A stretch of 64,000 nt of DNA. Source: Sphingomonas natans. GTDB taxonomy: Bacteria; Pseudomonadota; Alphaproteobacteria; Sphingomonadales; Sphingomonadaceae. The notes beneath the pieces are model-generated. The model was not told where the DNA came from. It ran no database searches and saw only the letters and a list, made by a program, of their open reading frames with translations. This document shows, piece by piece, positions 7,281 through 20,236 of this stretch. The DNA is taken from NCBI RefSeq assembly GCF_030546695.1, contig NZ_JAUOTP010000004.1, positions 434,001 to 498,000 on the forward strand. Direction: 5' to 3'. The stretch's first letter is position 1; each line of letters begins with the position of its first letter. Both the position numbers and the translations under genes were made by a program.

Positions 7281-10200
7281 TCACTGGAGCTGAAACGTCA
7301 GACGGCCCGCATAGCGGCCCGAAGCATCCGAAGGCAGTCCGGCCGGCCCGGTCGTGTTCGCCGGCTGGAATTTCGTGCCAATGGGGGGGATCGCCTTGAG
7401 GAAGCCGACATCGCTCGCCGGAAAGGCCGGCGACGTCGCGGGCGAATCCGCCACTTTCGCGCCGAGCTGCAGGAAGGTCTCGGCATCTTCGGTTCGCACC
7501 GTCCAGAGCCCGCCGGCAGTCTCGAAACGCGCCCAGCGCAGCCCGGCGAAATAGCCTGCATCATCGGGATGCAACGCCGATTTGGGATCGCTGCCTGCCA
7601 AATCATAAACGCCGAGCACGGTTCCGCGAGTGCGGTTCTTCCAGACCGGACGCGGCCCCTGCGCGAGCGCCCGGACCGATCGCACGCCTGCCGGCGGCTG
7701 ATCAAAACCGATGCCGTGGTACAGATATTGGCCGCTCAGCGAATAGGCATAGTCCAGCGTCAGCGTGCCATCCGGTCGCATCGTCCAGCGCGCGCTGTCC
7801 AGCCCGCCCGCGTTGCGCGCCTCTATCCATGCGGTGGCCCGACCCGTGGCCGGATCGCTGCCTTCGCCGCTGCTCAGGATCGCTGCCTTTGCCGCCAGCG
7901 GGAAGCGGCCGGGCTCGGCGCCGAGGCGGACCGAGACGATCTCCGGCGTACGATGGACCGCGTGGAGATCGGTCACCCGCACCATCGACACGGTCTGTGC
8001 GGGAAAGCCGTAGATCATGCCGTCGCGCTCGGTCCGATCTCCCGAAAAGATCGTCCGCCACGTCACGCCGTCGCCCGAGATCTCCGCCTTGAAACCACCC
8101 CAGCTATCCTGCCCCTTCAGCCCGATATCGATCTCGGCCTGATCGGCGAAGACGGGGCTCGACAGACGGAAAACGCCTGTGCCCGCCGGGCTCGTGCCGG
8201 TCCAGTCCGGCTTGTCGCCGGCTTTCCCTGCCGTCATCGCCACGAGGCGCGGCCCGTTGCGGAGCGAGACATCATGTCCGCCCCGTGACAGGCTCGTCAG
8301 CAGCCCGGTCGCGGCATCGAAACGCGCAATCGCGCCGCCCGCGGTCAGGCTCACGACATTGCCCGCGCGAGCCACATGCGGCGTGGCGCCGCGTCCGGAT
8401 GGCTCGGCCTCGTCGGGCTTGGCGACCGGCCAGGTCCATTGCGCCAGCACGGTGCCGCCCTCTTTCGCGACCATCGACAGCGCATCGGCCTTCGCCCAGC
8501 CGGGCGACAGCGGGACGCGCAACGCGCCGTTCGCATGCGGCGCGACCGGCGGCCCCGCAAAAGCGCCTGCGGCGATCGTCCGCGGCGTCGTCGCGCGATC
8601 GTTCGGGCCCGCGAACCGGATCCACGCATATTCGAAGCGCACGCGATCGAGCGACGTGAAGTCGTGGAGGTTCGTGACCGGGATCAGGCCCGCAAACCCG
8701 GCATCGATACGCGGCGCGGCGATCTGCACCGGCGACCACACGTCCCTGACCGCATAGGCGCTCGGCTCCCATTCGTGCCGCGCGCCGACGATCCCGTCCG
8801 GCGCGAGCGTGGCTGCGACGTCGATCCGGCCGGCCTGGTCGGTGCGCGCGATCCCTTCGTCGGCGAAAGCCCAGATGAACCCGCCGGCGCCGCGCGGCGA
8901 AGTGGAGATGGCGCGCCAATATTCGTCGACCCCCGCGCCGCCGCCGCCATCATACAGGCCGTGGAGAAATTCGGTCGGCATCACGAGAGCCGGGCCGCTC
9001 AGCCGGCGGACGAGATCCTCATAATGCGGATAATGCTTCGTATCGATCCCGCCATGCCACTCCCACGGGTGCAGCACGGTGCGCTGCTGCGGATCATAGA
9101 GCGCGAAATCGCCGTCCAGCTGGCGATTCCATCCGCCCTCATTGCCATTGTCCCAAAACAGGATGGCGGGGTGATTAACGTCGCGCTCGACGAGCTCGCG
9201 CACCAGCTTGCGCCCGACTTCCGTGTCATGCGCATGCTGCCAGCCGCTCAGCTCGTCGAGCACATAGAGGCCCAGTTCGTCCGCCGCTTCCAGGAAGGAT
9301 TCCTCGGGCGAATAATGCGACATCCGCACCGCATTCATGTTGAGCGCCTTCAACTCGCGCGCATCTGCATAGGAATCGGCGCGGCTGAGCGCGCGGCCCG
9401 TGTCGGCGCGGAAGCTGTGGCGATTGACGCCCTTTAGCAGGATGCGCTGGCCGTTGAGGAACAGTCCCTCGGGCCGCACCTCGAACGTCCGGAAGCCGAA
9501 ACGCTGGCGGGTCCGGTGTACAGCCGTCTCGCCATTGTAGAGCGTGAGATCCAGCGCATAGAGGTTGGGCGCCTCGGCCGACCACAATTTGGGATCGGCG
9601 ATATGACCGGCCACGCGCACCCGCCCGCTCCCGCCCGCCGGGATCGCCGTCGAGAAAGGCTGGCCGACCGGGCTCCCATCGAGCGTCACCACCTGCCCCT
9701 CGATCCGCGTCACCGTCTGGCCATCCACGCGTCCGCCCTGGGGCACGGCGATCCCGATGGTGGCGGCGATGTCGCCGTCGGCACGTGCGTCGATGGCGAC
9801 CGTGCCGATCGACTGCGCTGGCGCTGCCTCCAGCCACGCCGGCCGATAGATGCCGCTGAACGCCCAGTAGTCCGCATGCCGCTCGGCGAGTTCCGTATCC
9901 TTGGCCGCCGAGACCTCGCTCACCTCGACCTCGATCAGCGCCTCCTCGCCGGGCTTCACCAGCGCCGTCACGTCATAGCCGAAGCGGTTGAATCCCCCCT
10001 GATGAACGGGCCCCGCAACCGCCCCATTCACCTTGACCAGCGCGTCGGTCATCACGCCATCGAACACGATCCGGATGACGCGGCCCTTCCAGTCGGCCGG
10101 GATCGCGATCCGGCGGCTGTAAGAGCCATGATCCCCGTCCGCACGGGGGCCGAGATCATAGCCATATTGATAATGGCCGAAGCCCTTTTGCTGCCAGTTG

Positions 10201-10385
10201 GACGGCACGGCGATCTTGGCCGCCTTGCCTGCCTGCATGCCGCCGTCGATCCTAAAATCCCAGGGCACCGCATCGTCCGGACCGTGTCCGGTCAGCATCA
10301 GCCGCTGCGTCTCCGGCACGGGCGCGGCGAACGCCGCCGTCGTGCACAAGGCGGCCACCAGCCCGGCAAATGATCTACGGCGCAT
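7281..10385 (-). CDS. secreted glycoside hydrolase family 2 protein (beta-galactosidase-like)
   Basis: 1034 residues. Signal peptide MRRRSFAGLVAALC... with probable cleavage after AAFA. GH2 architecture: jelly-roll sugar-binding domain (~25-190), Ig-like domain (~195-305), TIM barrel (~310-590), then beta-rich domains including a discoidin-like stretch near SGDGVTWRTIF. The acid/base Glu is E416 in GNEGG; the nucleophile is probably E472 (MPTEFLHG), inferred from position. The family cleaves beta-galactosides, mannosides or glucuronides; the sugar here is not certain. ATG 10385 was preferred because AGAGGGG lies about 11 bases upstream and the signal peptide begins there; ATG 10394 is an alternative. 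The next gene downstream encodes another exported hydrolase. Confidence 0.88.
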   Translation of the reverse strand: MRRRSFAGLVAALCTTAAFAAPVPETQRLMLTGHGPDDAVPWDFRIDGGMQAGKAAKIAVPSNWQQKGFGHYQYGYDLGPRADGDHGSYSRRIAIPADWKGRVIRIVFDGVMTDALVKVNGAVAGPVHQGGFNRFGYDVTALVKPGEEALIEVEVSEVSAAKDTELAERHADYWAFSGIYRPAWLEAAPAQSIGTVAIDARADGDIAATIGIAVPQGGRVDGQTVTRIEGQVVTLDGSPVGQPFSTAIPAGGSGRVRVAGHIADPKLWSAEAPNLYALDLTLYNGETAVHRTRQRFGFRTFEVRPEGLFLNGQRILLKGVNRHSFRADTGRALSRADSYADARELKALNMNAVRMSHYSPEESFLEAADELGLYVLDELSGWQHAHDTEVGRKLVRELVERDVNHPAILFWDNGNEGGWNRQLDGDFALYDPQQRTVLHPWEWHGGIDTKHYPHYEDLVRRLSGPALVMPTEFLHGLYDGGGGAGVDEYWRAISTSPRGAGGFIWAFADEGIARTDQAGRIDVAATLAPDGIVGARHEWEPSAYAVRDVWSPVQIAAPRIDAGFAGLIPVTNLHDFTSLDRVRFEYAWIRFAGPNDRATTPRTIAAGAFAGPPVAPHANGALRVPLSPGWAKADALSMVAKEGGTVLAQWTWPVAKPDEAEPSGRGATPHVARAGNVVSLTAGGAIARFDAATGLLTSLSRGGHDVSLRNGPRLVAMTAGKAGDKPDWTGTSPAGTGVFRLSSPVFADQAEIDIGLKGQDSWGGFKAEISGDGVTWRTIFSGDRTERDGMIYGFPAQTVSMVRVTDLHAVHRTPEIVSVRLGAEPGRFPLAAKAAILSSGEGSDPATGRATAWIEARNAGGLDSARWTMRPDGTLTLDYAYSLSGQYLYHGIGFDQPPAGVRSVRALAQGPRPVWKNRTRGTVLGVYDLAGSDPKSALHPDDAGYFAGLRWARFETAGGLWTVRTEDAETFLQLGAKVADSPATSPAFPASDVGFLKAIPPIGTKFQPANTTGPAGLPSDASGRYAGRLTFQLQ

Positions 10386-10516
10386 CGCAAGCATCACCCC
10401 TCTTCGCAGTCGCACGACTGCCTAAAGCGGATCGCCTGCCCTGTCTCGCCGCGATCTGTCGGTCCTCTCAGCAGGTGGCGATCGATCGAATCGACGGGCC
10501 GGGCGTTGGGACCGAC

Positions 10517-10795
10517 ATGACCGACACAATCGAGAGCCTGCGCGAGCAGATGGAAGCCGCGGCGCTGGCGCTCGACTTCGAGGAGGCGCGCCGCCTGCGC
10601 GACAGGATCAATCTGATGCGCGGCGGAGCCTCGGCCAGCGAGGCCGAGCAGGCCGATGCCGCGGGGCTGATCCGCCAGCGTCCCGGCGCGATGGGGCTCG
10701 GCACGAGCCAGCAGCGGATGGAGCCTCCGCCGGGCTGGACGCCGCCGCCCAAACCCGATTTCCTCGCATCCGGCCGCCGCCGACGCGATCGTTGA
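10517..10795 (+). CDS. small UVR-motif protein (UvrB/UvrC interaction motif)
   Basis: 92 residues, starting at ATG 10517 (MTDTIESLREQ); the open frame upstream to 10370 shows no conserved look. Residues ~6-30 (ALDFEEARRLRDRI) match the UVR helix-loop-helix by which UvrB and UvrC bind each other. The remainder is low-complexity and Pro-rich, ending in RRRRDR. Stand-alone UVR proteins of this size occur in sphingomonads, often annotated as excinuclease ABC subunit B domain protein. A role in nucleotide excision repair or protein scaffolding is inferred from the motif only. It is divergent from the GH2 gene, with a 131-bp gap holding no recognised motif. Confidence 0.75.
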   Translation: MTDTIESLREQMEAAALALDFEEARRLRDRINLMRGGASASEAEQADAAGLIRQRPGAMGLGTSQQRMEPPPGWTPPPKPDFLASGRRRRDR

Positions 10796-10902
10796 CCCGA
10801 TAGGCGCGCGCAACCGAGCGTCCCCGTGCCTGCCCTCGCTATCCGCCGGTGCCAGTCGGCGATAAGGCTCGTCAGGATGAAACCGGGAATCGGACGGGTC
10901 GG

Positions 10903-11814
10903 ATGAGCAGCACCACCGCGCCAGCGCCAGGCAATCGCCTCCCCGCCTGGCTTCCCATCCTCATCGGGCTGGCGGTCGCCGCCTCGTGCCTGGTCCTCGC
11001 GTGGAGCCACGGCGGGCTCGTCACCGGCAAGGCGTCCGATGGCTTCAACCCGGTCTATGCCTTTTCGGGGCTTGCGATCGGCATCCTCGTCGGTCTGACC
11101 GGCATCGGCGGCGGCTCTTTGATGACGCCTCTGCTCGTGCTGCTGTTCGGGCTCCATCCCAGCACCGCGGTCGGCACCGATCTGCTCTACGCCTCGGCCA
11201 CCAAGAGTGTCGGCACGATGGTCCACGGCGCCAATCGCACGATTGACTGGCGCGTGACCGGGCGTCTGGCGCTGGGCAGCGTTCCCGCGACGATCCTCAC
11301 GGTCGGCCTGCTCTATGTCCTGCGCGACAACGAGGGATCCTCGTCGAAGCTCATCTCGACCGTGCTCGGCTTCGCCTTGCTGCTGACCGCGGTGACCTTG
11401 TTCTTCCGCCACAAATTGTTCGAGCTCGCGCAGCGGCGATCCTTCGTGCTCAGCCCCGCGAGAGCGCAGACGCTGACGATCGTGCTCGGCGCGGCGCTCG
11501 GCGTCCTGATCACTCTCTCCTCGGTCGGCGCGGGCGCGATCGGCGTGACGGTGCTGATCTTCCTCTATCCCGACATGCCGCTGTCGCGCATCGTCGGCTC
11601 GGACATCGCCCACGCCGTTCCGCTCACCCTGATCGCGGGTGCGGGCCACCTCGCCTTGGGGACGGTAAATCTGCCGCTGATGGAATCTTTACTCGTCGGC
11701 TCGATCCCCGGCATCATCCTCGGCAGCCACTTCGCCGCGCGCGCCTCGGATCGCATCCTGCGGCCGATCCTCGCGGGCACGCTCGTGCTGGTCGGCGGAC
11801 GCCTCGTATTCTGA
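10903..11814 (+). CDS. TauE/SafE family sulfite/anion exporter
   Basis: 303 residues and about eight transmembrane helices. The first TauE repeat has the glycine-rich signature GLTGIGGGSLMTPLL (~residue 65) and the second GVLITLSSVGAGAIG (~205), as expected for the duplicated family fold. Members move sulfite, sulfoacetate or other organosulfonates. ATG 10903 (MSSTTAPAPG) is preferred over the in-frame ATG 10849 because homologues have a short N-terminus before the first helix. The gene lies 130 bp upstream of the run that ends in a methionine-type importer; a shared sulfur theme is possible, but separate transcription is likely. Confidence 0.88.
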   Translation: MSSTTAPAPGNRLPAWLPILIGLAVAASCLVLAWSHGGLVTGKASDGFNPVYAFSGLAIGILVGLTGIGGGSLMTPLLVLLFGLHPSTAVGTDLLYASATKSVGTMVHGANRTIDWRVTGRLALGSVPATILTVGLLYVLRDNEGSSSKLISTVLGFALLLTAVTLFFRHKLFELAQRRSFVLSPARAQTLTIVLGAALGVLITLSSVGAGAIGVTVLIFLYPDMPLSRIVGSDIAHAVPLTLIAGAGHLALGTVNLPLMESLLVGSIPGIILGSHFAARASDRILRPILAGTLVLVGGRLVF

Positions 11815-11930
11815 TCACTGCGGCTCGCACCGCTGCAAGATCAGCTTTGGCCCGCCCAAGAAGAGCCCATTCGGCAAATCTCCTATCGCACCGCTAGGAT
11901 TTCCCGACAGCCGATGATCGGCGCCGGTCG

Positions 11931-11947
11931 GGAGAGGAGTAGCGTTG
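11931..11947 (+). promoter_or_regulatory. strong ribosome-binding site fixing a TTG start
   Basis: GGAGAGGAG at 11931-11939 is followed after five bases (TAGCG) by TTG at 11945. No ATG in this frame lies within the first conserved region, so this site decides the start of the desaturase gene. Confidence 0.7.
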
Positions 11948-12862
11948 AGGGGTCCAGCTCGTGCGTCCCGCATATCCGCGGTCGAATGGCCCACGCTCCT
12001 GCTGGCGGTGGCGGTCTATGGCGGTTGGCTGCTGGCGACCCTCTATCATGCGGGCCTGCCCGGCTGGCTGCTGCCGTTCGTCGGCGGCTGGTTGATCGCC
12101 TGGCAGGGCTCGCTCCAGCACGAGACGATCCACGGCCATCCCACCCCCAACCGGACGGTCAACGCGCTGATCGGCGCCGCACCGCTCTCGCTCTGGCTGC
12201 CTTACGCCGTCTATCGCCGGACGCATCTCGCGCACCATGCGACGGAGGCGGTCACCGATCCGTTCGAGGATCCCGAATCCCGCTATCTGGCGGATGACGA
12301 ACGCCTTTGGACGCGCGCGGCGCTGCTGCTGGAAGCGACGCAGGCGACGCTCGCCGGTCGACTCCTGCTCGGCCCGCCGGTCACGATCGGTCGCTCCCTG
12401 ATCGGCGAAAGCGCCCGCCTGGTCCGCACCCCGATCGCGGTGCTGCGCGACTGGCTTCCTCATCTGGCGGGCGTCGCGCTCGTCCTGATCTGGCTCGATC
12501 ATGTCGGATTGACGCTCGGCCGATATGGGCTCTGCTTCGTCTATCCGGGCACGGCGCTCTCGCTGCTGCGCTCCTTCGCCGAGCATCGCGCGGATCCTCT
12601 GCCCGATCACCGCGTCGCCATCGTCGAGCGCGCGGGGCCCTTCGCTTTGCTGTTCCTGCACAACAATCTCCACGCCGCGCATCACCGCGCACCGGGCCTT
12701 CCGTGGTTCCGGCTGCCGGGCTTCTATCGCGCGAACCGCTCCTCGCTCCTCGCCGGCAACGGGGGGCTGATCTACGCCGGCTATCGCGACGTCGCGCGCC
12801 GCTACCTGCTCCACGCGCACGACACGCTCATCCACCCCGACCATGCCAGACCGGCGCCATGA
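11945..12862 (+). CDS. membrane fatty acid desaturase family protein
   Basis: 305 residues, TTG start set by the Shine-Dalgarno sequence GGAGAGGAG five bases upstream. The three His clusters of the di-iron membrane desaturase/hydroxylase superfamily are present: QHETIHGH (~residue 58), RTHLAHH (~97) and NLHAAHH (~240). Hydrophobic pairs lie at ~15-55, ~75-90, ~165-190 and ~200. It may desaturate or hydroxylate an acyl chain; regiospecificity cannot be read. The last four bases overlap the ATG of the next gene (ATGA), so translation is probably coupled to the PhnD-like gene and the desaturase is the first cistron of the run to 18.8 kb. Confidence 0.85.
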   Translation: MRGPARASRISAVEWPTLLLAVAVYGGWLLATLYHAGLPGWLLPFVGGWLIAWQGSLQHETIHGHPTPNRTVNALIGAAPLSLWLPYAVYRRTHLAHHATEAVTDPFEDPESRYLADDERLWTRAALLLEATQATLAGRLLLGPPVTIGRSLIGESARLVRTPIAVLRDWLPHLAGVALVLIWLDHVGLTLGRYGLCFVYPGTALSLLRSFAEHRADPLPDHRVAIVERAGPFALLFLHNNLHAAHHRAPGLPWFRLPGFYRANRSSLLAGNGGLIYAGYRDVARRYLLHAHDTLIHPDHARPAP

Positions 12863-13671
12863 GCCGCCGCGCCGCCTCGCTCGGTATGTACGACACGCCC
12901 GGCGCGCGTGCGGCGAACGATCAGCTGTGGACCGCCATCGCCGCCCACCTCGCGCGAACCGGCGTCACGAATGTTCCGCCCCGGCTCGATCGCGATCGCG
13001 CCCCGGCCGTGATCTGGGACGACGAAAGGCTCTTGCTCGCCCAATCCTGCGGCTATCCGTTCGTCACCGCCTGGCGCGACAAGCTCCCTTATGTCGCGAC
13101 CCCGCGCTATCGCGTCGCAGGTTGCGACGGCAGCACCTATCGCAGCCGCATCGTCGTGCGCATCGATGATCCGGCCGACGCCCTGATTGCCCTCCGCGAC
13201 CGACGCGCCGCGCTCAACGAATCGAGCTCCAATTCAGGCATGAACCTCTTCCGCGCCGCCGTGGCGCCTCTGGCCGACGGCGGGCGCTTCTTCTCGGAGC
13301 TGATCGCGACCGGATCGCACGTCGCCAGCGCCCGCCTCGTCGCGACGGGCGGCGCCGACGTCGCCGCGATCGATGCCGTGTCTTTCGCCCATCTCGAGCG
13401 CGACGAGCCCGAGACGGCCCGCCGGCTGCGCACGATCGGCTGGACGATCGCTTCGCCGGGCCTGCCCCTCGTCACCTCGCCCGCGACGACCGCGCGGGAG
13501 CTTGCCGCCCTGCGCGAAGCCCTGGCCGCGGTCGCCACCGATCCCGCTCTGGCCGAAGCGCGCGCTTTGCTGTTTCTCGACGGCTTCGATATCCTGGATC
13601 CTGCAGCCTATGAGGCGATCCGCACGATCGAGGAGGACGCGATCCGGCTCGGTTATCCCGCGCTCGCATGA
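12859..13671 (+). CDS. PhnD-like substrate-binding-fold protein without signal peptide
   Basis: 270 residues, resembling the phosphate/phosphonate ABC-transporter binding component (PhnD-like): an opening MYDTPGARAANDQLW strand, LLLAQSCGYPF, a hinge with ALNESSSNSGMNLFR (~115-130) and AAIDAVSFAHLERD. It has no signal peptide or lipobox, so it should stay in the cytoplasm, which is unusual for a binding protein. Stand-alone cytosolic PhnD-like proteins exist but their ligands are mostly unknown. ATG 12859 overlaps the desaturase stop by four bases. The following ATP-grasp gene begins 79 bp later. Confidence 0.72.
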   Translation: MSRRAASLGMYDTPGARAANDQLWTAIAAHLARTGVTNVPPRLDRDRAPAVIWDDERLLLAQSCGYPFVTAWRDKLPYVATPRYRVAGCDGSTYRSRIVVRIDDPADALIALRDRRAALNESSSNSGMNLFRAAVAPLADGGRFFSELIATGSHVASARLVATGGADVAAIDAVSFAHLERDEPETARRLRTIGWTIASPGLPLVTSPATTARELAALREALAAVATDPALAEARALLFLDGFDILDPAAYEAIRTIEEDAIRLGYPALA

Positions 13672-13750
13672 CGCACCTCGACCTGCGCCCGCCAAGACCG
13701 CTAAGTGCGCCGATGATCTCGATACCCTCCCCTGCGCTTCGGCACCGTCC

Positions 13751-14656
13751 ATGACCGATCTCGCCATCCTCTATGAGCATCCGGTCTGGTTCCAGCCGCT
13801 GTTCGCCGCGCTCGACCGGCGCGGGGTCGATTATGCCGCGCTGCGCCCCGATGGCGGCTTCGATCCTGCCGATGCCACTGCGCCTGCGCCCGTGATCCTC
13901 AGCCGCATCGCCATGTCGGCGTTCCTGCGCGAGGCCGAGCATCCGATCTTCTGGACCGGTGCCCTGCTCGCGCAGTGGGAACGCGCCGGCGCGCGGGTGC
14001 TGAACGGCCCGGCGGCGCTCGCGATCGACACGTCCAAGGCGCGCCAGCTTTCGCTTGTGTCCGGCCTCGGCCTCGCCATCCCCAAGACGCGCGTCGTCCA
14101 TCGCGCGGCAGATGTCGCGGACGCTGCCGACGCGGTCGGCTTCCCCTTGGTCGTGAAGGCCAATATCGGCGGCGCGGGCGCGGGCATCGTCCGCTTCGAC
14201 ACGCGCGACGAACTGCGCGCCGCCATCGCTGACGGCGGCCTCCCCACGAGCATCGACGGCGTCCTGCTCGTGCAGGATTATGTCCCCGCGCACGGTGGCG
14301 CGATCACCCGCATCGAAACGCTCGACCGGGCCTATCTTTATGCGATCGAGGTCAGGGGCGATGGCGGCTTCGATCTCTGCCCAGCCGATGCCTGCCAGGT
14401 TCCCGGCAGCGCCATCACGATGACCGCGGTCGAACCCGCCCCCGCACTGCGCGACGCGGCCGAGGCGATCGCGCGCGCCGCCTCGCTCGATGTCGGCGGG
14501 GTCGAGGTGATGATCGACGATCGCGACGGCGTCGCCCGCTTCTACGATATCAACGCGCTCTCCAATTTCGTCGCGAAGCCGCTCGACGTGCTCGGCTGGG
14601 ATCCGCACGATCAGCTGGTCGATCGTCTGATCGGCTGGATCGGGGAGGCGCGCTGA
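13751..14656 (+). CDS. ATP-grasp ligase (RimK-like)
   Basis: 301 residues with an N-terminal Rossmann-like part (~1-90, ILYEHPVWFQPLFAALDRRG) and an ATP-grasp core: PLVVKANIGGAGAGIV (~135, P-loop-like glycine-rich lid with its ATP-binding Lys), DYVPAHGG (~178), GGVEVMID and FYDINALSNF (~270) supplying metal-binding Glu/Asp/Asn. RimK-type enzymes join an amino acid to a carboxylate using ATP; acceptor and donor here are unknown. The N-terminus is set at ATG 13751 because the upstream open frame lies within the previous gene. The stop TGA shares one base with the ATG of the flavin monooxygenase gene (TGATG), so the two are translationally coupled. Confidence 0.8.
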   Translation: MTDLAILYEHPVWFQPLFAALDRRGVDYAALRPDGGFDPADATAPAPVILSRIAMSAFLREAEHPIFWTGALLAQWERAGARVLNGPAALAIDTSKARQLSLVSGLGLAIPKTRVVHRAADVADAADAVGFPLVVKANIGGAGAGIVRFDTRDELRAAIADGGLPTSIDGVLLVQDYVPAHGGAITRIETLDRAYLYAIEVRGDGGFDLCPADACQVPGSAITMTAVEPAPALRDAAEAIARAASLDVGGVEVMIDDRDGVARFYDINALSNFVAKPLDVLGWDPHDQLVDRLIGWIGEAR

Positions 14657-15672
14657 TGCGCTACGGCTTTTGGATGCCCGTCTTCGGCGGCTGGCTGCGC
14701 AACGTGCCCGACGAGGGCATGGAGGCGAGCTGGGACTATGCCAAGCGCTTGACGCAGGATGCCGAGCGCTGGGGCTATGACCTCACGCTGATTGCCGAGC
14801 TCAACCTCAACGACATCAAGGGTATCGATCAGCCCGCGCTCGATGCCTGGTCCACCGCCGCCGCTCTGGCCGCGGTCACCGAGCGGCTCGAGCTGATGGT
14901 CGCGGTCCGCCCCAATTTCCACCACCCCGCGCTCTTCGCAAAGGCGGCGGCGAATATCGATCGGATCGCCGGCGAGCGGCTGTCGCTCAACGTCGTCTCG
15001 TCCTGGTGGGCGGACGAGGCGCGCCAGTACGGGCTCCAGTTCGATCAGCATGACGATCGCTATGCGCGCACCGCCGAATGGCTGCAGGTCGTCGATGGCC
15101 TATGGACGCAGGAGCGTTTCAGCTTCGCGGGCGATTTCTACACCACCGAAGACGCGATCTGCGCCCCCAAGCCCGTCAAGCGCCCGATCGTCTATGCCGG
15201 CGGCGAGAGCGACAAAGCCAAGCAGATGATCGCCGCGCAATGCGACGCCTATGTCATGCACGGCGATCCGGTCGACGCGGTCGCTCCCAAGATCGCCGAC
15301 ATGGCCCGCCGCCGCGAAGCCGCGGGCGGCGCGCCGATGACCTATGGCATGGCCGCCTATGCGATCGTCCGCGACAGCGAGGCCGAGGCCAAGCGCGAGC
15401 TGGAGCGGATCACGACCGTTGCCGACCTCCCCGCCGGCTACGACAATTTCGATCAGTGGCTGTCGGGCACGCAGCTGGAGCGCGAGCTGAAGCTGCAGGA
15501 ATATTCGGTCTCGAACCGCGGCCTGCGCCCCAACCTCGTCGGCACGCCCGAACAGCTTAAGGAGCGCATCGCCGAATATGCAGAGGCCGGGCTCGATCTG
15601 CTGCTGCTCCAGATGAGCCCGCAGGCCGAGGAGATGGAGCGTTTCGCCGTGCAGGTGATGGGCACCGCATGA
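14656..15672 (+). CDS. LLM-class flavin-dependent monooxygenase (dimethylsulfone monooxygenase-like)
   Basis: 338 residues, a luciferase-like TIM barrel. The segment [19 protein letters not shown] (~residue 110) and [18 protein letters not shown] (~135) resemble the SfnG/SsuD branch, which uses FMNH2 to split C-S bonds of sulfones and sulfonates. A nitrilotriacetate-type monooxygenase substrate cannot be excluded. No flavin reductase is encoded nearby, so reduced flavin must come from elsewhere. It overlaps the ATP-grasp gene by one base and the ATPase gene by four, placing it firmly in the operon with the methionine-type importer. A role in releasing sulfur from an organosulfur compound is inference from family and context. 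Confidence 0.83.
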
Positions 15673-16400
15673 TCACGCTCGACCATGTCAACAAGCGCTT
15701 CGCCGACGGCACGCGTGCGCTCGACGACGTCTCGCTCGACGTGCCGCAGGGCTCGGTGTTCGGCGTGATCGGCCGCTCGGGTGCGGGCAAATCGACTTTG
15801 CTGCGGCTGATCAACGGCCTCGAAAAGCCGAGCGAGGGCGAGGTGCGCGTGCTCGGCGCGGCGCTGAGCGGCCTGTCGCCCGCCGCCCTGCGCGATCTGC
15901 GCCGCGGGATCGGCATGATCTTCCAATCTTTCGGCCTGCTCGCCTCGCGCACCGTCGCCGGCAATGTCGCTCTGCCGCTCGAACTGTCGAAGGTGCCCCG
16001 CGCCGAGCGCAACATACGCGTCGCCGAACTGCTCGCCCGCGTCGGCCTGTCCGACAAGGCCGACGTCCACCCGGCCCGCCTTTCGGGCGGCCAGCGCCAG
16101 CGCGTCGGCATCGCGCGCGCGCTCGCCACCCGCCCCGGCATCCTGCTCTGTGACGAGGCGACGAGCGCGCTCGATCCAGAGACGACGCGCTCCGTGCTGG
16201 CCCTGCTCGGCGAGCTCAACCGCGAGCTCGGCCTGACGATCGTCCTCATCACGCACGAGATGAGCGTCGTCCGCGCGATCTGCGATCATGTCGCGGTGCT
16301 CGATTCCGGTCGTCTGGTCGAGGCCGGTCCCGTCGCCTCGGTCTTCGCCGATGCGCGCCACGAGGCGACGCTCCAATTGCTCGGCGAGGGCGCGGGATGA
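15669..16400 (+). CDS. metN: MetN-type ABC transporter ATPase without the C-terminal regulatory domain
   Basis: 243 residues. Walker [10 protein letters not shown] (35-43), Q-loop MIFQSFGLL (~82), signature LSGGQRQR (~140), Walker [12 protein letters not shown] (~163) and switch His in ITHEMSV. The sequence closely follows the ATPase core of MetN, but MetN proteins normally run to about 340 residues with a C-terminal NIL/ACT-like domain that binds methionine and shuts transport down. Here the protein ends right after the ATPase core (QLLGEGAG), so that trans-inhibition domain is absent. It overlaps the monooxygenase gene and the permease gene by four bases each. Confidence 0.88.
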
Positions 16401-17062
16401 CCGATTTCTTCGCGCATATCGTCTGGAGCGAGATCGGCCGCGCGACGCTCGATACGCTGATCATGCTCGGCGCCAGTCTTGCGCTGACGATCCTGCTCGG
16501 CATTCCCCTCGGCGTGCTGCTGTTCCTCACCGACGAGGGCCAGCCCGCCCGCAACCGCCCGATCAATCGGATCGTCGGCATCCTGGTCAACATCCTCCGC
16601 TCGATCCCGTTCGTGATCCTGCTGATCGTCATGATCCCGCTGACCTTGCTGCTCGTCGGCACTTCATTGGGCGTCGCCGGCGCGATCCCGCCGCTCGTCG
16701 TCGGCGCCGCCCCTTTCTACGCGCGCCTCGTCGAGGGGGCGCTGCGCGACGTGCCCCGCGCGACGATCGAGGCGGTCCAGGCGATGGGCGCGACCCGGCT
16801 GCAGATCGTGACGCGGATGCTGCTGCCCGAGACGCTCCCCGGCCTGATCTCGGGCGCGACGATCACCGCCGTCGCGCTCGTCTCGTTCACCGCCATGGCC
16901 GGCGTCGTCGGCGCAGGCGGCTTGGGCGATCTCGCCATCCGCTACGGCTATCAGCGCTTCCAGACCGACGTCATGCTGGTCACGGTCACGCTGATGGTCT
17001 TGCTGGTCCAGATCATCCAGTTTGCCGGCGATCGCCTCGCCCGCCATTTCGACCATCGCTGA
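16397..17062 (+). CDS. metI: MetI-type ABC transporter permease
   Basis: 221 residues, five predicted transmembrane helices, with the coupling segment [21 protein letters not shown] (~residues 118-138) that contacts the ATPase in MetI-type permeases. It imports methionine or a methionine-like solute together with the adjacent ATPase and lipoprotein. The start ATG overlaps the ATPase stop by four bases and the stop is eight bases before the binding-protein start. Length matches MetI of other proteobacteria (~217). Confidence 0.9.
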
Positions 17063-17070
17063 GGATGCTT

Positions 17071-17874
17071 ATGCCCACCCGTCGCACGATCCTGGCCCTC
17101 GCCTCCGCCTTGCTGCTCGCGGCCTGCGGCGGCAGCGGCGCCAAGAAGGCCGATCCAAACACGCTCACCATCGCCGCGACCGCTGTGCCGCACGCCGAGA
17201 TCCTCGAGTTCGTGAAGCCCGAACTGGCCAAGGAAGGTCTGACGCTCGAGATCCGCGTCTTCAACGATTATGTGCAGCCCAATCTTCAGGTCGATCAGGG
17301 CCAGATCGACGTCAGCTATTTCGAGACCAAACCCTATCTCGACACGTTCAACGCCTCGCGCGGCACCAAGCTCGTCCCCATCGCCGGCATCCATGTCGAG
17401 CCGCTCGGCGCTTATTCGCGCAAGTGGAAGACGCTTGCCGCGCTGCCCGACGGCGCCGCCGTCGCCATCCCCAACGAGCCGAGCAATGGCGGCCGCGCTC
17501 TGCTCCTCCTTCAGAAGGCGGGCCTGATCACCTTGCGGAACCCGACCGATCCGCTCGCCACGCTCAAGGACATCACCGCCAACCCGAAGCATCTCGCCTT
17601 CCGCGAAATCGAATCCGCCACCCTCCCCCGCATCCTCGGCGAGGTCGATCTTGCGCTGATCAATACCAATTACGCGCTCGATGCCGGCCTCAACCCTATC
17701 CGCGACGCGCTCGTGATCGAGGACGGCACCTCTCCCTACGTCAACTTCGTCGTCGGCCGCCCCGGCAGCGACAAGGATCCCCGCGTCCAGAAGCTGATCG
17801 CCGCCTTGCGCTCGCCCGAGGTCAAGGCCTTCATCCAGCGCAAATATCAGGGCGCGGTCCTGCCAAGCTTCTAG
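17071..17874 (+). CDS. metQ: MetQ-type substrate-binding lipoprotein
   Basis: 267 residues. Lipoprotein signal with lipobox LLAAC; the Cys at residue ~20 would be lipidated. The NLPA/MetQ fold is clear: TIAATAVPHAEIL, DYVQPNLQVDQGQIDVSYFE, PNEPSNGGRALLLLQKAGL and ALINTNYALDAGL, segments that line the methionine pocket in MetQ. ATG 17071 is chosen because GAGGA (17061-17065) sits five bases upstream; ATG 17065 lies inside that site. It delivers substrate to the MetI/MetN pair just upstream and stands ten bases before an exported SAM hydrolase gene. Confidence 0.92.
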   Translation: MPTRRTILALASALLLAACGGSGAKKADPNTLTIAATAVPHAEILEFVKPELAKEGLTLEIRVFNDYVQPNLQVDQGQIDVSYFETKPYLDTFNASRGTKLVPIAGIHVEPLGAYSRKWKTLAALPDGAAVAIPNEPSNGGRALLLLQKAGLITLRNPTDPLATLKDITANPKHLAFREIESATLPRILGEVDLALINTNYALDAGLNPIRDALVIEDGTSPYVNFVVGRPGSDKDPRVQKLIAALRSPEVKAFIQRKYQGAVLPSF

Positions 17875-17884
17875 GGGAAGGGTT

Positions 17885-18826
17885 ATGCTCAACCGACTGG
17901 CCCGCGGGGCGCTGGTGCTGCTTGCGCTGATCATAGCCTCGCCGATCGCCGCGCAGGACGCGCCTGCCGGCGCCCCGCTCGTGCTGATGACCGACTTCGG
18001 CCTGCGCGACGGCGCCGTCTCCGAAGTGAAAGGCGTCGCCTACGGCGTCTCGCCCCGGCTGCTCGTCTCCGACCTTACCCACGAAATCCCGGCGGGCGAC
18101 ATCTGGGCCGGCGCCTACCGGCTGTATCAGGTCGCGCCTTACTGGCCGAAGGGCACGGTGTTCGTCGCGGTCGTCGATCCCGGCGTCGGCACCGCCCGCC
18201 CGTCGATCGGCGTGCGCACGAAGGCCGGCCATTATTATATCCTGCCCGACAACGGCCTGATCACGCTGATCGACGAGGTGGAAGGCGTCGCCGAGGCGCG
18301 CCGGATCGACGAGCATGTCAATCGCCTGCCCGGCTCGGAGAAGAGCAACACGTTCCACGGCCGCGACGTCTTCGGCTATACCGGCGCGCGCCTCGCCGCG
18401 GGCGTCATCAGCTTCGCGCAGGTCGGCCCCGAAATCCCCGTCGCCCGGCTCGTCCGGCTGCCGCACCAGAAAGCGGTGCGCGAAGGCCGCGTGTTGAAGG
18501 GCGACATCCCCGTCCTCGATGTCCAGTACGGCAATGTCTGGACGAACATCCCGGCCGCACTCGTCGACGAACTGGGCATCACGCTCGGCGATCCGCTCAG
18601 GTTCGAGATCTTCCATGACGGCCGCCTCGTCGACAGCGTCACCGCGCCTTATGCGCAATCCTTCGGCTTCGTGCCGCAAGGGCAGCCCGTCGCCTACATC
18701 AACAGCCTGCTCAATCTTTCGCTGGCGCTGAACGAAGGCGATTACGCCAAGGCGCATCATGTGGCATCGGGGCTGAACTGGACGATCCGGGTGTCTGCCG
18801 AGCGACTGCCGTCGCGCGGCCGCTAA
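17885..18826 (+). CDS. exported S-adenosylmethionine hydroxide adenosyltransferase (DUF62)
   Basis: 313 residues. N-terminal signal peptide with probable cleavage near AAQ-DAP (~23/24). The mature part has all landmarks of the SAM hydrolase/DUF62 family: MTDFGLRDG (35-43), VVDPGVGTAR (96-105), PDNGL (121-125) and FHGRDVF (157-163). The Asp-Arg-His triad of archaeal DUF62 maps to D98, R105 and H158. The family hydrolyses SAM to adenosine and methionine. Export is unusual because SAM is normally cytoplasmic. The gene follows the MetQ gene by ten bases, suggesting that methionine released in the periplasm is taken up by the adjacent importer; that link is inference. Confidence 0.88.
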   Translation: MLNRLARGALVLLALIIASPIAAQDAPAGAPLVLMTDFGLRDGAVSEVKGVAYGVSPRLLVSDLTHEIPAGDIWAGAYRLYQVAPYWPKGTVFVAVVDPGVGTARPSIGVRTKAGHYYILPDNGLITLIDEVEGVAEARRIDEHVNRLPGSEKSNTFHGRDVFGYTGARLAAGVISFAQVGPEIPVARLVRLPHQKAVREGRVLKGDIPVLDVQYGNVWTNIPAALVDELGITLGDPLRFEIFHDGRLVDSVTAPYAQSFGFVPQGQPVAYINSLLNLSLALNEGDYAKAHHVASGLNWTIRVSAERLPSRGR

Positions 18827-18862
18827 CGCATGCGGCCCGAGCGAAGCGGAGACGAAATTCGG

Positions 18863-20236
18863 ATGTTTGAGCCAGGGACGCCACCGGTCATTCGGGAGGC
18901 GGCGATCGTCGGTGGGGGGTTCAGCGGCGCGCTGCAGGCGATCAACCTGTTGCGCCACGCCGGCCCGAAGGCGATCCTGATCGAACGCAAGCCCAGCGTC
19001 GGCCGCGGCGCGGCTTATTCGGTGACCGACCCCTCGCTGCTGCTCAACGTGCGCGCCGCGAACATGAGCGCCTTCCCCGACGATGCGGCGCATTTCGTGC
19101 GCTGGCTCGAAAGCCGATCATTGGGCACGCAGGGCTTCGTGCCGCGCGCGCTCTACGGCGAATATCTGAGCGAAACGCTGGAGGCCGCGCGGGCGAGCGA
19201 CCCCGGCCGGATCGAGATCCTGCAGGGCGACGCCGTTCGCGCCGATCTGTCCGCGGGCGGCGTCTCGGTCGCGCTGGCCGATGGCCGCGCAATCAAGGCC
19301 GATGCTCTCGTGCTGGCGGTCGGCAACCTGCCGCCGACCGCGCCGGACAATCTCGATCCCGCGCAATTGCCGGACGACGTCTATGTCGCCGATCCCTGGC
19401 AGGGCGCCAGTTCCGACAATCTCGTCGCTGAGGATCTCGTGCTGATCGTCGGCACCGGGCTGACGATGGTCGATGCCGCTCTGCTGCTCGACAATCGCGG
19501 CTTCGCGGGCCGGATCGTCGCGCTGTCGCGCCGCGGCCTGTTGCCCCGCCCGCATGGCGAAGGCGCGCCGCCTCACGGCAAGCTCGGCGAGCGCCCGCGC
19601 ACGGATCTGACCCCGCTCCTGCGCGAAGTCCGCGCACGCAGTGAGGCGATCGGCTGGCATGCGGCGGTCGACGAGCTTCGCCCCTTCACGCAGAGCCTGT
19701 GGCTCGGCGCGACCGAGGATCAGCGCACGCGCTTCCTCCGTCACCTGCGCCCCTGGTGGGAGGTCCACCGGCACCGGCTCGCTCCGCCCGTCGCCGCCCG
19801 GCTCGCGGTCCTGCAGGCGGAGGGCCGTCTCCAGATCGTCGCGGGCAAAACGCTCGGCTTCGCGCCGCAGGGGAAAGGCACTCTCGTCCGCTGGCGGCCG
19901 CGTGGACAAGACGGGGTGCAGGAGCTGCTCGCCCGGCGGATCGTCAATTGCAGCGGCCCGCGCGTTGATCTCGCGCGCACCGCCGATCCGCTCCTCCGCC
20001 AGCTTCGGCAGGCCGGGCTGATCGTGCCCGACGAGTGCGCGCTCGGCATCGCGGTCGATCGCTACAGCCGCGTCGTCGGCGCCAGCGGCGCGCCGTCCGA
20101 TCGGCTGTTCGCGCTCGGCCCGCTCACTCGCGGGACCTTCTGGGAGATCACGGCGGTGCCCGATATCCGGGTGCAGACCTGGGGGCTCGCGCGGCGCCTC
20201 TCCAACGCGCACTGGATCTCGTCCGAAGGGCTCTGA
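18863..20236 (+). CDS. FAD/NAD(P)-binding oxidoreductase family protein
   Basis: 457 residues. N-terminal dinucleotide-binding motif AAIVGGGFSGALQA (~12-25) for FAD and a second motif LVLIVGTGLTMVDAALLL (~190-207) for NAD(P), the pattern of the YdhS-like group with an FAD-NAD(P)-binding domain. LLNVRAANMSAFPDD near residue 60 is typical of this group. The redox substrate is unknown. ATG 18863 (MFEPGTPP) is chosen; an in-frame ATG at 18830 would add 11 unconserved residues. It follows the SAM hydrolase after 36 bp on the same strand and may belong to the same transcript. It converges with the next gene, three bases between stops. Confidence 0.75.
   Translation: MFEPGTPPVIREAAIVGGGFSGALQAINLLRHAGPKAILIERKPSVGRGAAYSVTDPSLLLNVRAANMSAFPDDAAHFVRWLESRSLGTQGFVPRALYGEYLSETLEAARASDPGRIEILQGDAVRADLSAGGVSVALADGRAIKADALVLAVGNLPPTAPDNLDPAQLPDDVYVADPWQGASSDNLVAEDLVLIVGTGLTMVDAALLLDNRGFAGRIVALSRRGLLPRPHGEGAPPHGKLGERPRTDLTPLLREVRARSEAIGWHAAVDELRPFTQSLWLGATEDQRTRFLRHLRPWWEVHRHRLAPPVAARLAVLQAEGRLQIVAGKTLGFAPQGKGTLVRWRPRGQDGVQELLARRIVNCSGPRVDLARTADPLLRQLRQAGLIVPDECALGIAVDRYSRVVGASGAPSDRLFALGPLTRGTFWEITAVPDIRVQTWGLARRLSNAHWISSEGL

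What the first reader, a model, noticed from the sequence alone, without database searches (positions are those of the whole stretch)
17071..18826. Exported SAM hydrolase next to a methionine-type importer: periplasmic SAM salvage?
The DUF62 protein keeps the Asp98-Arg105-His158 triad of SAM hydroxide adenosyltransferases yet carries a clear signal peptide, and its gene begins ten bases after metQ. Cleavage of extracellular SAM in the periplasm would release methionine exactly where MetQ captures it. I know of no described system of this type.
Basis: partly seen in the sequence, partly recalled or inferred. Interest (0 to 1): 0.78.

Follow-up and report, generated by a model that had tools for sequence, protein, structure and literature searches.

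The report
Exported SAM-splitting enzyme beside methionine-type importer
A sphingomonad-like bacterium carries an enzyme predicted to leave the cytoplasm and split S-adenosylmethionine into methionine and adenosine; it belongs to a wide exported branch of a known enzyme family and may let cells feed on outside S-adenosylmethionine, but its place beside a methionine-type importer was found only in this strain.

Summary
In detail: metQ (17071-17874) is followed after 10 bases by a DUF62/SAM hydrolase gene (17885-18826) with a signal-like N-terminus and intact Asp98-Arg105-His158. Export looks clade-wide: 82 of 82 DUF62 frames in the window's own and the 80 closest scanned loci have a signal-like stretch; an E. 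coli homologue has one too, and 2381 of 5426 complete E. coli genomes match it. But the metQ neighbourhood is not conserved: 0 of 80 loci, 0 of 6 family genomes with near MetQ, where ATP-grasp/monooxygenase/metNIQ is the older unit. Independent clues favour methionine or SAM salvage: sister genes of Listeria and E. faecium lie behind T-box leaders with AUG specifier; exported members adjoin a homocysteine methyltransferase, a nucleoside importer or related TonB receptors (8 of 80 loci). Against: MetQ has Thr where four aligned solved relatives have His. Activity, epimer preference, export and use of outside SAM are unshown. Most likely a periplasmic SAM hydrolase for sulfur/methionine scavenging; new variant of a known family.

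The parts
17885..18826 (+). DUF62 / SAM hydroxide adenosyltransferase, 313 aa, exported subfamily
   Evidence: PF01887 165.4 bits, PF20257 66 bits; best solved relatives SalL 2q6o/2q6i (5.7e-40, 8.1e-40), 2zbu, PH0463 2wr8/1wu8
17885..17953 (+). predicted Sec signal peptide (about residues 1-23)
   Evidence: two Arg, then ALVLLALIIA mean 3.38, small residues before Gln; rule-based, no SignalP
18176..18199 (+). triad residues Asp98 to Arg105 (motif DPGVGTAR)
   Evidence: 84 of 84 exported-clade rows keep both
18356..18358 (+). triad residue His158
   Evidence: 81 of 84 exported-clade rows
17071..17874 (+). MetQ/NlpA-family substrate-binding lipoprotein (metQ)
   Evidence: PF03180 304.9 bits; TIGR00363 203.6 bits, below its cut-off 228.85; best solved relative 4k3f 302.6 bits, MetQ 4yah 187.5 bits
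16397..17062 (+). metI permease
   Evidence: NF008049 222.3 bits, over cut-off 212
15669..16400 (+). metN ATPase, 243 aa, matching positions 1-236 of the 343-position MetN model
   Evidence: TIGR02314 316.6 bits, below cut-off 499.7
14656..15672 (+). luciferase-like flavin monooxygenase (SfnG/SsuD type)
   Evidence: PF00296 201.8 bits; TIGR04021 SfnG 231.7 bits, below cut-off 382.95; solved relatives 3rao, 8vw6, 8t0u
13751..14656 (+). RimK-like ATP-grasp protein, travels with the monooxygenase and metNIQ
   Evidence: PF08443 33.5 bits; near them in 4 of 6 relatives
12859..13671 (+). PhnD-like substrate-binding-fold protein without obvious signal peptide
   Evidence: PF12974 78.2 bits
11945..12862 (+). 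fatty-acid-desaturase-fold gene at the head of the gene string
   Evidence: PF00487 99.6 bits; membership in the unit inferred from overlap with the next gene
18830..20236 (+). FAD/NAD(P)-binding protein, 3 bases after DUF62
   Evidence: PF13454 116.9 bits; in 29 of 149 family genomes including the own, elsewhere near monooxygenase, NMT1-type binding protein or TonB receptor genes

Best explanation
The gene encodes a periplasmic S-adenosylmethionine hydrolase. After Sec export, the Asp98-Arg105-His158 site activates water, which attacks C5' of SAM and yields adenosine and methionine (chemistry known for DUF62, inferred here). The substrate is SAM from outside, from lysed neighbours or leakage, perhaps mostly the (R,S) epimer, which forms spontaneously. 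Methionine, or its sulfur, is then taken up; in this strain the gene was added behind an older organosulfur-scavenging operon (ATP-grasp, flavin monooxygenase, metNIQ), so that hydrolase and a MetQ-type importer are made together. Shown: genes, operon-like spacing, intact triad, signal-like N-terminus here and in the closest relatives, placement seen in this strain only. Inferred: activity, epimer, source of SAM, uptake by MetQ, direction of the addition.
For: Triad kept, as in hydrolases and unlike halogenases (triad D68-R75-H127 in PMC4859513, passages; PMC10491745, passages). Signal-like stretch in 82 of 82 DUF62 frames. One tree branch (100/100, bootstrap not fully settled) joins 84 exported and 2 Firmicutes rows against 27 cytosolic alphaproteobacterial rows. 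The two Firmicutes sisters have T-box leaders ending 69 (L111) and 101 (L112) bases before the annotated start, with AUG in the specifier position as I read it; PMC2494555 Table 2 lists Listeria lmo2587 with a Met T-box as 'Met related cytosolic hypothetical' (passage). Neighbours of exported members: TonB receptor, homocysteine S-methyltransferase and flavin monooxygenase in L009; DeoC, PnrA-type nucleoside-binding protein and two permeases in L011; TonB receptor, Cys/Met PLP enzyme and PALP-plus-CBS enzyme in L016. Related TonB receptors lie within 850 bases on the same strand in 8 of 80 loci. Searched with the L016 receptor, 6 of the 7 other genomes have the DUF62-linked one as best match; the seventh (L073) gave none at 1e-40 (places compared by hand). 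The own genome has one CNT nucleoside transporter for the adenosine.
Against: metQ adjacency is found only here: 0 of 80 and 0 of 6. No neighbour is shared across the clade: the widest neighbour cluster spans 18 of 81 loci and is not a sulfur gene by eye; in E. coli the gene lies between yigE and uvrD. Relatives of the TonB receptor also occur in genomes where none is near DUF62 (for example 42% in L014's genome, 41% in L005's). MetQ has T86 where the four aligned solved relatives have His, though the Pedobacter MetQ of L045 has Asn there. No methionine-responsive RNA was found at the operon. PMC12120602 doubts that (R,S)-SAM hydrolysis is the physiological role of StDUF62 (abstract and passages). 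His158 is lost in 3 of 84 rows, among them L009, the locus with the homocysteine methyltransferase. How much SAM is free outside cells was not looked up.
Confidence: 0.5

Rival explanations
1. The operon scavenges another organosulfur compound (an alkyl sulfone, sulfonate or oxidised methionine derivative); the exported DUF62 enzyme cleaves a different periplasmic sulfonium or nucleoside compound, and MetQ binds something other than methionine.
For: The recurrent partners of this metNIQ are a SfnG/SsuD-type monooxygenase and an ATP-grasp protein, in 4 of 6 relatives that lack DUF62. In the 8 other neighbourhoods of the downstream FAD gene that I fetched, a monooxygenase gene adjoins it in L172 and L178, an NMT1-type binding protein is near in L174, and TonB receptors are near in L172, L174, L176 and L178 (the L176 one by phmmer only). 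MetQ has T86 instead of His.
Against: The DUF62 hydrolases named in the passages read act on SAM; many columns are invariant among 32 exported members, triad D and R included; T-box leaders with AUG specifier before the sister genes point to methionine.
Confidence: 0.22
2. The exported enzyme is an envelope clean-up or housekeeping enzyme that destroys leaked SAM or its (R,S) epimer; its place behind metQ is an accident of insertion.
For: metQ adjacency was found only in this strain; no neighbour is shared across the clade; StDUF62 acts only on (R,S)-SAM (passages of PMC12120602).
Against: Does not explain the Met-type T-box leaders of the sisters, the nucleoside importer in L011 or the homocysteine methyltransferase in L009, nor the recurrent TonB receptor.
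Confidence: 0.2
3. The protein stays in the cytoplasm, the hydrophobic N-terminus being a membrane anchor or a start-site artefact, and it is an ordinary cytosolic SAM repair hydrolase.
For: No signal-peptide program could be run; DUF62 proteins studied so far are, as I recall, cytosolic.
Against: 82 of 82 relatives (own included) keep a hydrophobic N-terminal stretch although its letters vary, and two E. coli records have one. Of the 29 class-sample loci L082-L110, 27 lack such a stretch; L089 and L107 pass only in upstream extensions of the frame (48 and 306 residues before the domain motif).
Confidence: 0.05

Closest known systems
SAM hydroxide adenosyltransferase / (R)-SAM hydrolase (DUF62, PF01887; PH0463, StDUF62)
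   Same: Both Pfam domains over cut-off, Asp-Arg-His triad with the same 7-residue Asp-to-Arg spacing as D68-R75
   Different: Signal-like N-terminus; below the cut-offs of both NCBIfam (R)-SAM hydrolase equivalogs (156.2 of 350 and 115.4 of 470 bits); separate branch from cytosolic alphaproteobacterial proteins
SalL chlorinase / FlA fluorinase
   Same: Same fold family; best solved sequence match is SalL
   Different: Halogenases lack the triad (passage); this protein has it
T-box-led DUF62 genes of Listeria monocytogenes and Enterococcus faecium
   Same: Same side of the main tree branch, 43-44% identical to the window protein
   Different: No signal-like stretch; the E. faecium one is followed by an ECF-type transporter, so import would come before hydrolysis (inference)
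MetNIQ methionine importer
   Same: MetI over its subfamily cut-off, MetQ/NlpA family
   Different: MetN and MetQ below their cut-offs; MetN covers only the first 236 of 343 model positions; T86 in MetQ

Membership tests
DUF62 / SAM hydroxide adenosyltransferase | PF01887 and PF20257 domains over gathering score | tested here: met
   165.4 and 66 bits
DUF62 / SAM hydroxide adenosyltransferase | Asp-Arg-His triad | tested here: met
   D98, R105, H158
DUF62 / SAM hydroxide adenosyltransferase | hydrolysis of SAM to adenosine and methionine | not testable with these tools
   no assay
(R)-SAM hydrolase equivalogs NF058624, NF053629 | score over the curated cut-off | tested here: not met
   156.2 of 350 and 115.4 of 470 bits; 9 other DUF62 proteins of this subfamily also stay below
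SAM-dependent halogenase | loss of the hydrolase triad, halide site | tested here: not met
   triad present; TIGR04507 100.4 of 400 bits
Sec-exported protein | signal peptide ahead of the domain | tested here: met
   rule-based only (hydrophobic 10-mer); 82 of 82 frames
MetNIQ methionine importer | MetI over cut-off | tested here: met
   222.3 over 212
MetNIQ methionine importer | MetN and MetQ over NCBIfam cut-offs | tested here: not met
   MetN 316.6 of 499.7; NF008285 209.4 of 374; TIGR00363 203.6 of 228.85
MetNIQ methionine importer | methionine pocket of MetQ | tested here: inconclusive
   Asn and Arg motifs kept, T86 where four aligned solved relatives have His; that these residues line the pocket is recalled; L045's MetQ has Asn there
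Conserved metQ-DUF62 unit | adjacency in relatives | tested here: not met
   0 of 80 loci, 0 of 6 MetQ relatives

The most novel reading that the evidence does not exclude
Many bacteria use extracellular SAM, mainly the (R,S) epimer, as food by a two-step route not described so far: a dedicated TonB receptor brings it through the outer membrane, an exported DUF62 hydrolase splits it in the periplasm, and inner-membrane importers take up methionine (MetNIQ in this strain) or adenosine (PnrA-type importer in the Holophagaceae locus). Firmicutes would do the same in reverse order, import first (in E. faecium by an ECF transporter) and then hydrolysis, under Met T-box control.
Probability: 0.33. 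Interest if true: 0.8.

Novelty: new variant of a known kind. Interest (0 to 1): 0.6.

Why it matters
The physiological role of DUF62 hydrolases is openly doubted (PMC12120602, abstract and passages). An exported clade that reaches Bacteroidota, Aeromonas and 2381 of 5426 complete E. coli genomes, with a T-box-led sister group in Firmicutes, gives that question a concrete and easily tested answer: salvage of outside SAM. It would also make free SAM a shared nutrient in communities.

Tried and rejected
Riboswitch control of the window operon: in 9000-19000 the only match up to E = 1 was a sub-threshold Cyano-2 (22.4 of 40 bits) at 10092-10187, taken as chance; at gathering threshold the window has two tRNAs only. 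L147, L149 and L152 of the MetQ relatives were scanned for RNA, L148, L150 and L151 were not. A conserved metNIQ-DUF62 unit: rejected. metI/metQ-type genes in the flanks (up to 10 kb, many loci shorter): only L045 (2.3-4 kb away, opposite strand) and metNI in L016 (8-9 kb), too few to argue from. Cystathionine-synthase-like genes lie in the flanks of 8 loci, next to DUF62 only in L016, otherwise 2.8-9.4 kb away; not taken as evidence. DUF62 as a foreign gene by composition: G+C and GC3 are like the neighbours, so no support. TonB test: the profile was built from the adjacent receptors and is circular, and it did not pick up every TonB-like frame seen by eye, so only the best-match test is used (at most 31 candidates a genome are scored there; the query's own genome is left out of the count). 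Neighbours of exported members were scanned by Pfam only in L009, L011 and L016; the rest by eye and by the queries. Rows left out of the tree by me: L082, L104, L107 (ill-defined or long frames), L116 (same letters as L114) and the re-fetched copies from L117 on. Papers: PMC3608174 (passages), PMC3766115 and PMC4239095 (passages): no occurrence of 'DUF62' in the main texts; PMC4597187 and PMC6004538 (passages): nothing on DUF62 seen. No paper on an exported DUF62 or periplasmic SAM salvage stood in the listings, which show only the top of longer lists (20 of 5,545, 20 of 77, 10 of 96, 30 of 30); PMC6299022, listed, was not read. 'lmo2585' was searched by mistake for lmo2587 (0 papers). Kornfuehrer 2020 and Rodionov 2004 were not held; what I say of the former comes from passages of other papers.

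Full report
The observation. The window carries a string of genes on the + strand with overlaps or gaps of a few bases: ATP-grasp 13751-14656, flavin monooxygenase 14656-15672, metN 15669-16400, metI 16397-17062, metQ 17071-17874, DUF62 17885-18826, FAD/NAD(P)-binding protein 18830-20236. A PhnD-like gene and a desaturase-fold gene precede it. The DUF62 protein has both family domains well over the cut-offs and the triad D98, R105, H158. Its first 23 residues or so look like a Sec signal peptide and the domain starts at about residue 32. The own genome has exactly one PF01887 match.

Placing the genome. Genomes G653 and G778, reported as of the same family, have DUF62 contigs with the lengths of the Novosphingobium contigs of L004 and L003, so the window is probably from the Sphingomonadaceae (inference).

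How rare and how wide. PF01887 is found in 1 of 7 genomes of the genus, 1 of 149 of the family sample and 60 of 385 of the class sample, the own genome counted each time. Close relatives of this protein: 3 of 396 genomes of the order sample at 1e-30, 3 of 398 of the phylum sample at 1e-60, 1 of 149 in the family of Asticcacaulis at 1e-60. A scan of genome contigs confirmed 297 relatives and kept the best 80: Novosphingobium, Asticcacaulis, Paludibacterium, Uliginosibacterium, a Holophagaceae MAG, many Bacteroidota, Aeromonas. All 82 DUF62 reading frames in these 80 loci and the window's own locus have a hydrophobic signal-like stretch (lowest 10-mer mean 1.89). These are the closest relatives to a signal-bearing query, not a random sample. 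Two E. coli records show the signal MKKTLATLFLLTCLGSSSAYAD; the gene lies between yigE and uvrD, and 2381 of 5426 complete E. coli genomes hold a match (2374 over at least 80% of the query).

The tree. With 113 rows, 84 exported and 2 Firmicutes rows stand on one side of a fully supported branch and 27 cytosolic rows on the other. The Firmicutes rows, which have no signal-like stretch, fall among the exported rows in the midpoint-rooted tree; they have long branches and the bootstrap had not settled, so their exact place is unsure. D98 and R105 are kept in 84 of 84 exported rows, H158 in 81 of 84; some rows are near-copies.

The metQ neighbourhood. None of the 80 loci has metQ adjacent; metI/metQ-type genes occur within the flanks only in L045 and L016. 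From the other side, 7 of 149 family genomes, the own included, have a close MetQ. In the six others the ATP-grasp and monooxygenase genes accompany metNIQ in four (L147, L148, L149, L152) and not in two (L150, L151); DUF62 is beside none. By their handle numbers these six lie in the sample, where no genome but the own has a PF01887 match. So the DUF62 gene was probably added to an older operon in this lineage. The FAD gene behind it is found in 29 of 149 family genomes. In the 8 other neighbourhoods I fetched (L171-L178) it adjoins flavin monooxygenase genes in L172 and L178, has an NMT1-type binding protein near in L174, and TonB receptors within about 3.5 kb in L172, L174, L176 and L178 (L176 by phmmer only). 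The operon therefore looks like organosulfur scavenging (inference).

What other members sit beside. L009 (Asticcacaulis): OmpP1/FadL-type protein, DUF6691, TonB receptor, homocysteine S-methyltransferase, DUF62, isochorismatase-fold protein, monooxygenase. L011 (a Holophagaceae MAG; its DUF62 groups with Paludibacterium, so misbinning or transfer is possible): DeoC, DUF62, PnrA-type nucleoside-binding protein, two permeases. L016 (Uliginosibacterium): TonB receptor and DUF62, then on the other strand a Cys/Met PLP enzyme and a PALP-plus-CBS enzyme. A related group of TonB receptors lies within 850 bases on the same strand in 8 of 80 loci: L009, L013, L016 (66-70% identical to each other), L025, L038, L073 (61-68%), L023, L067 (60%); between the groups about 28-38% over long alignments. 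In L009 the methyltransferase gene lies between. L010 has a TonB receptor of another type. Searched with the L016 receptor, the DUF62-linked receptor is the genome's best match in 6 of the 7 other genomes (L009, L013, L023, L025, L038, L067); L073's genome gave none at 1e-40. I compared the places by hand with the contig ranges. Weaker relatives of the receptor occur in many of the 32 genomes searched without lying near DUF62, so the receptor family is not exclusive to DUF62.

The Firmicutes sisters. In E. faecium (plasmid record, L112) a T-box leader ends 101 bases before the annotated DUF62 start, and ECF-type transporter genes follow; a second T-box precedes a permease and mmuM. In L. monocytogenes (L111) a T-box ends 69 bases before DUF62. 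In all three leaders the letters AUG stand where the consensus alignment puts the specifier (read by eye; that position is recalled knowledge). Wels and others 2008 (PMC2494555, passage) list lmo2587 with a Met T-box; that this is the same gene rests on my recollection that mdrT is lmo2588. Only these two Firmicutes were looked at. This is the strongest evidence that the subfamily serves methionine supply.

MetQ is nearer to 4k3f than to MetQ 4yah, and has T86 where the four aligned solved proteins (of 22 matched) have His; 5 of the 6 relatives also have Thr and the sixth was not matched by the pattern, while L045's MetQ has Asn. MetN and MetQ miss their NCBIfam cut-offs. Methionine as ligand is thus unproven. 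No RNA control was found at the window operon. No neighbour is shared across the exported clade.

Literature. DUF62 enzymes hydrolyse SAM; StDUF62 takes only the (R,S) epimer, and a 2025 paper doubts that this is its role (PMC12120602, abstract and passages; PMC10491745, passages; triad in PMC4859513, passages). The listings showed no paper on an exported DUF62 or periplasmic SAM salvage; they show only the top of some lists and the library lacks most subscription journals.

Verdict. An exported-looking SAM hydrolase with its triad intact, of a broad exported clade that I found described nowhere in these searches. Salvage of outside SAM is the best single explanation (0.5); the MetQ partnership is a local arrangement, not a conserved system.

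Noticed in passing
L112 7639-7887 (+) and 4780-5007 (-); L111 7667-7916 (+): T-box leaders with AUG specifier (read by eye) directly before cytosolic DUF62 genes of E. faecium and L. monocytogenes, and before a permease-mmuM pair in E. faecium.
   Followed up: partly
L116 5201-6950: In E. coli the exported DUF62 gene follows yigE (phosphodiester glycosidase PF09992, also with a signal-like N-terminus) beside uvrD; a match was found in 2381 of 5426 complete genomes, so it is absent from or too diverged in the rest.
   Followed up: partly
L008, L009, L012: The catalytic His of the triad is Tyr (L008, L009) or Phe (L012) in three exported members while Asp and Arg stay; the activity may be altered.
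   Followed up: no
L013 2563-4821: Two exported DUF62 genes on the same strand about 300 bases apart, behind a TonB receptor gene cut by the locus end.
   Followed up: no
window 12859-13671: PhnD-like binding-protein fold without an obvious signal peptide inside the gene string.
   Followed up: no
L026, L031 and other loci, mostly 2-4 genes upstream of DUF62: Genes that look like agmatine deiminase (cluster in 10 loci) and N-carbamoylputrescine amidase (cluster in 9 loci) recur upstream of exported DUF62; named by eye, not scanned.
   Followed up: no
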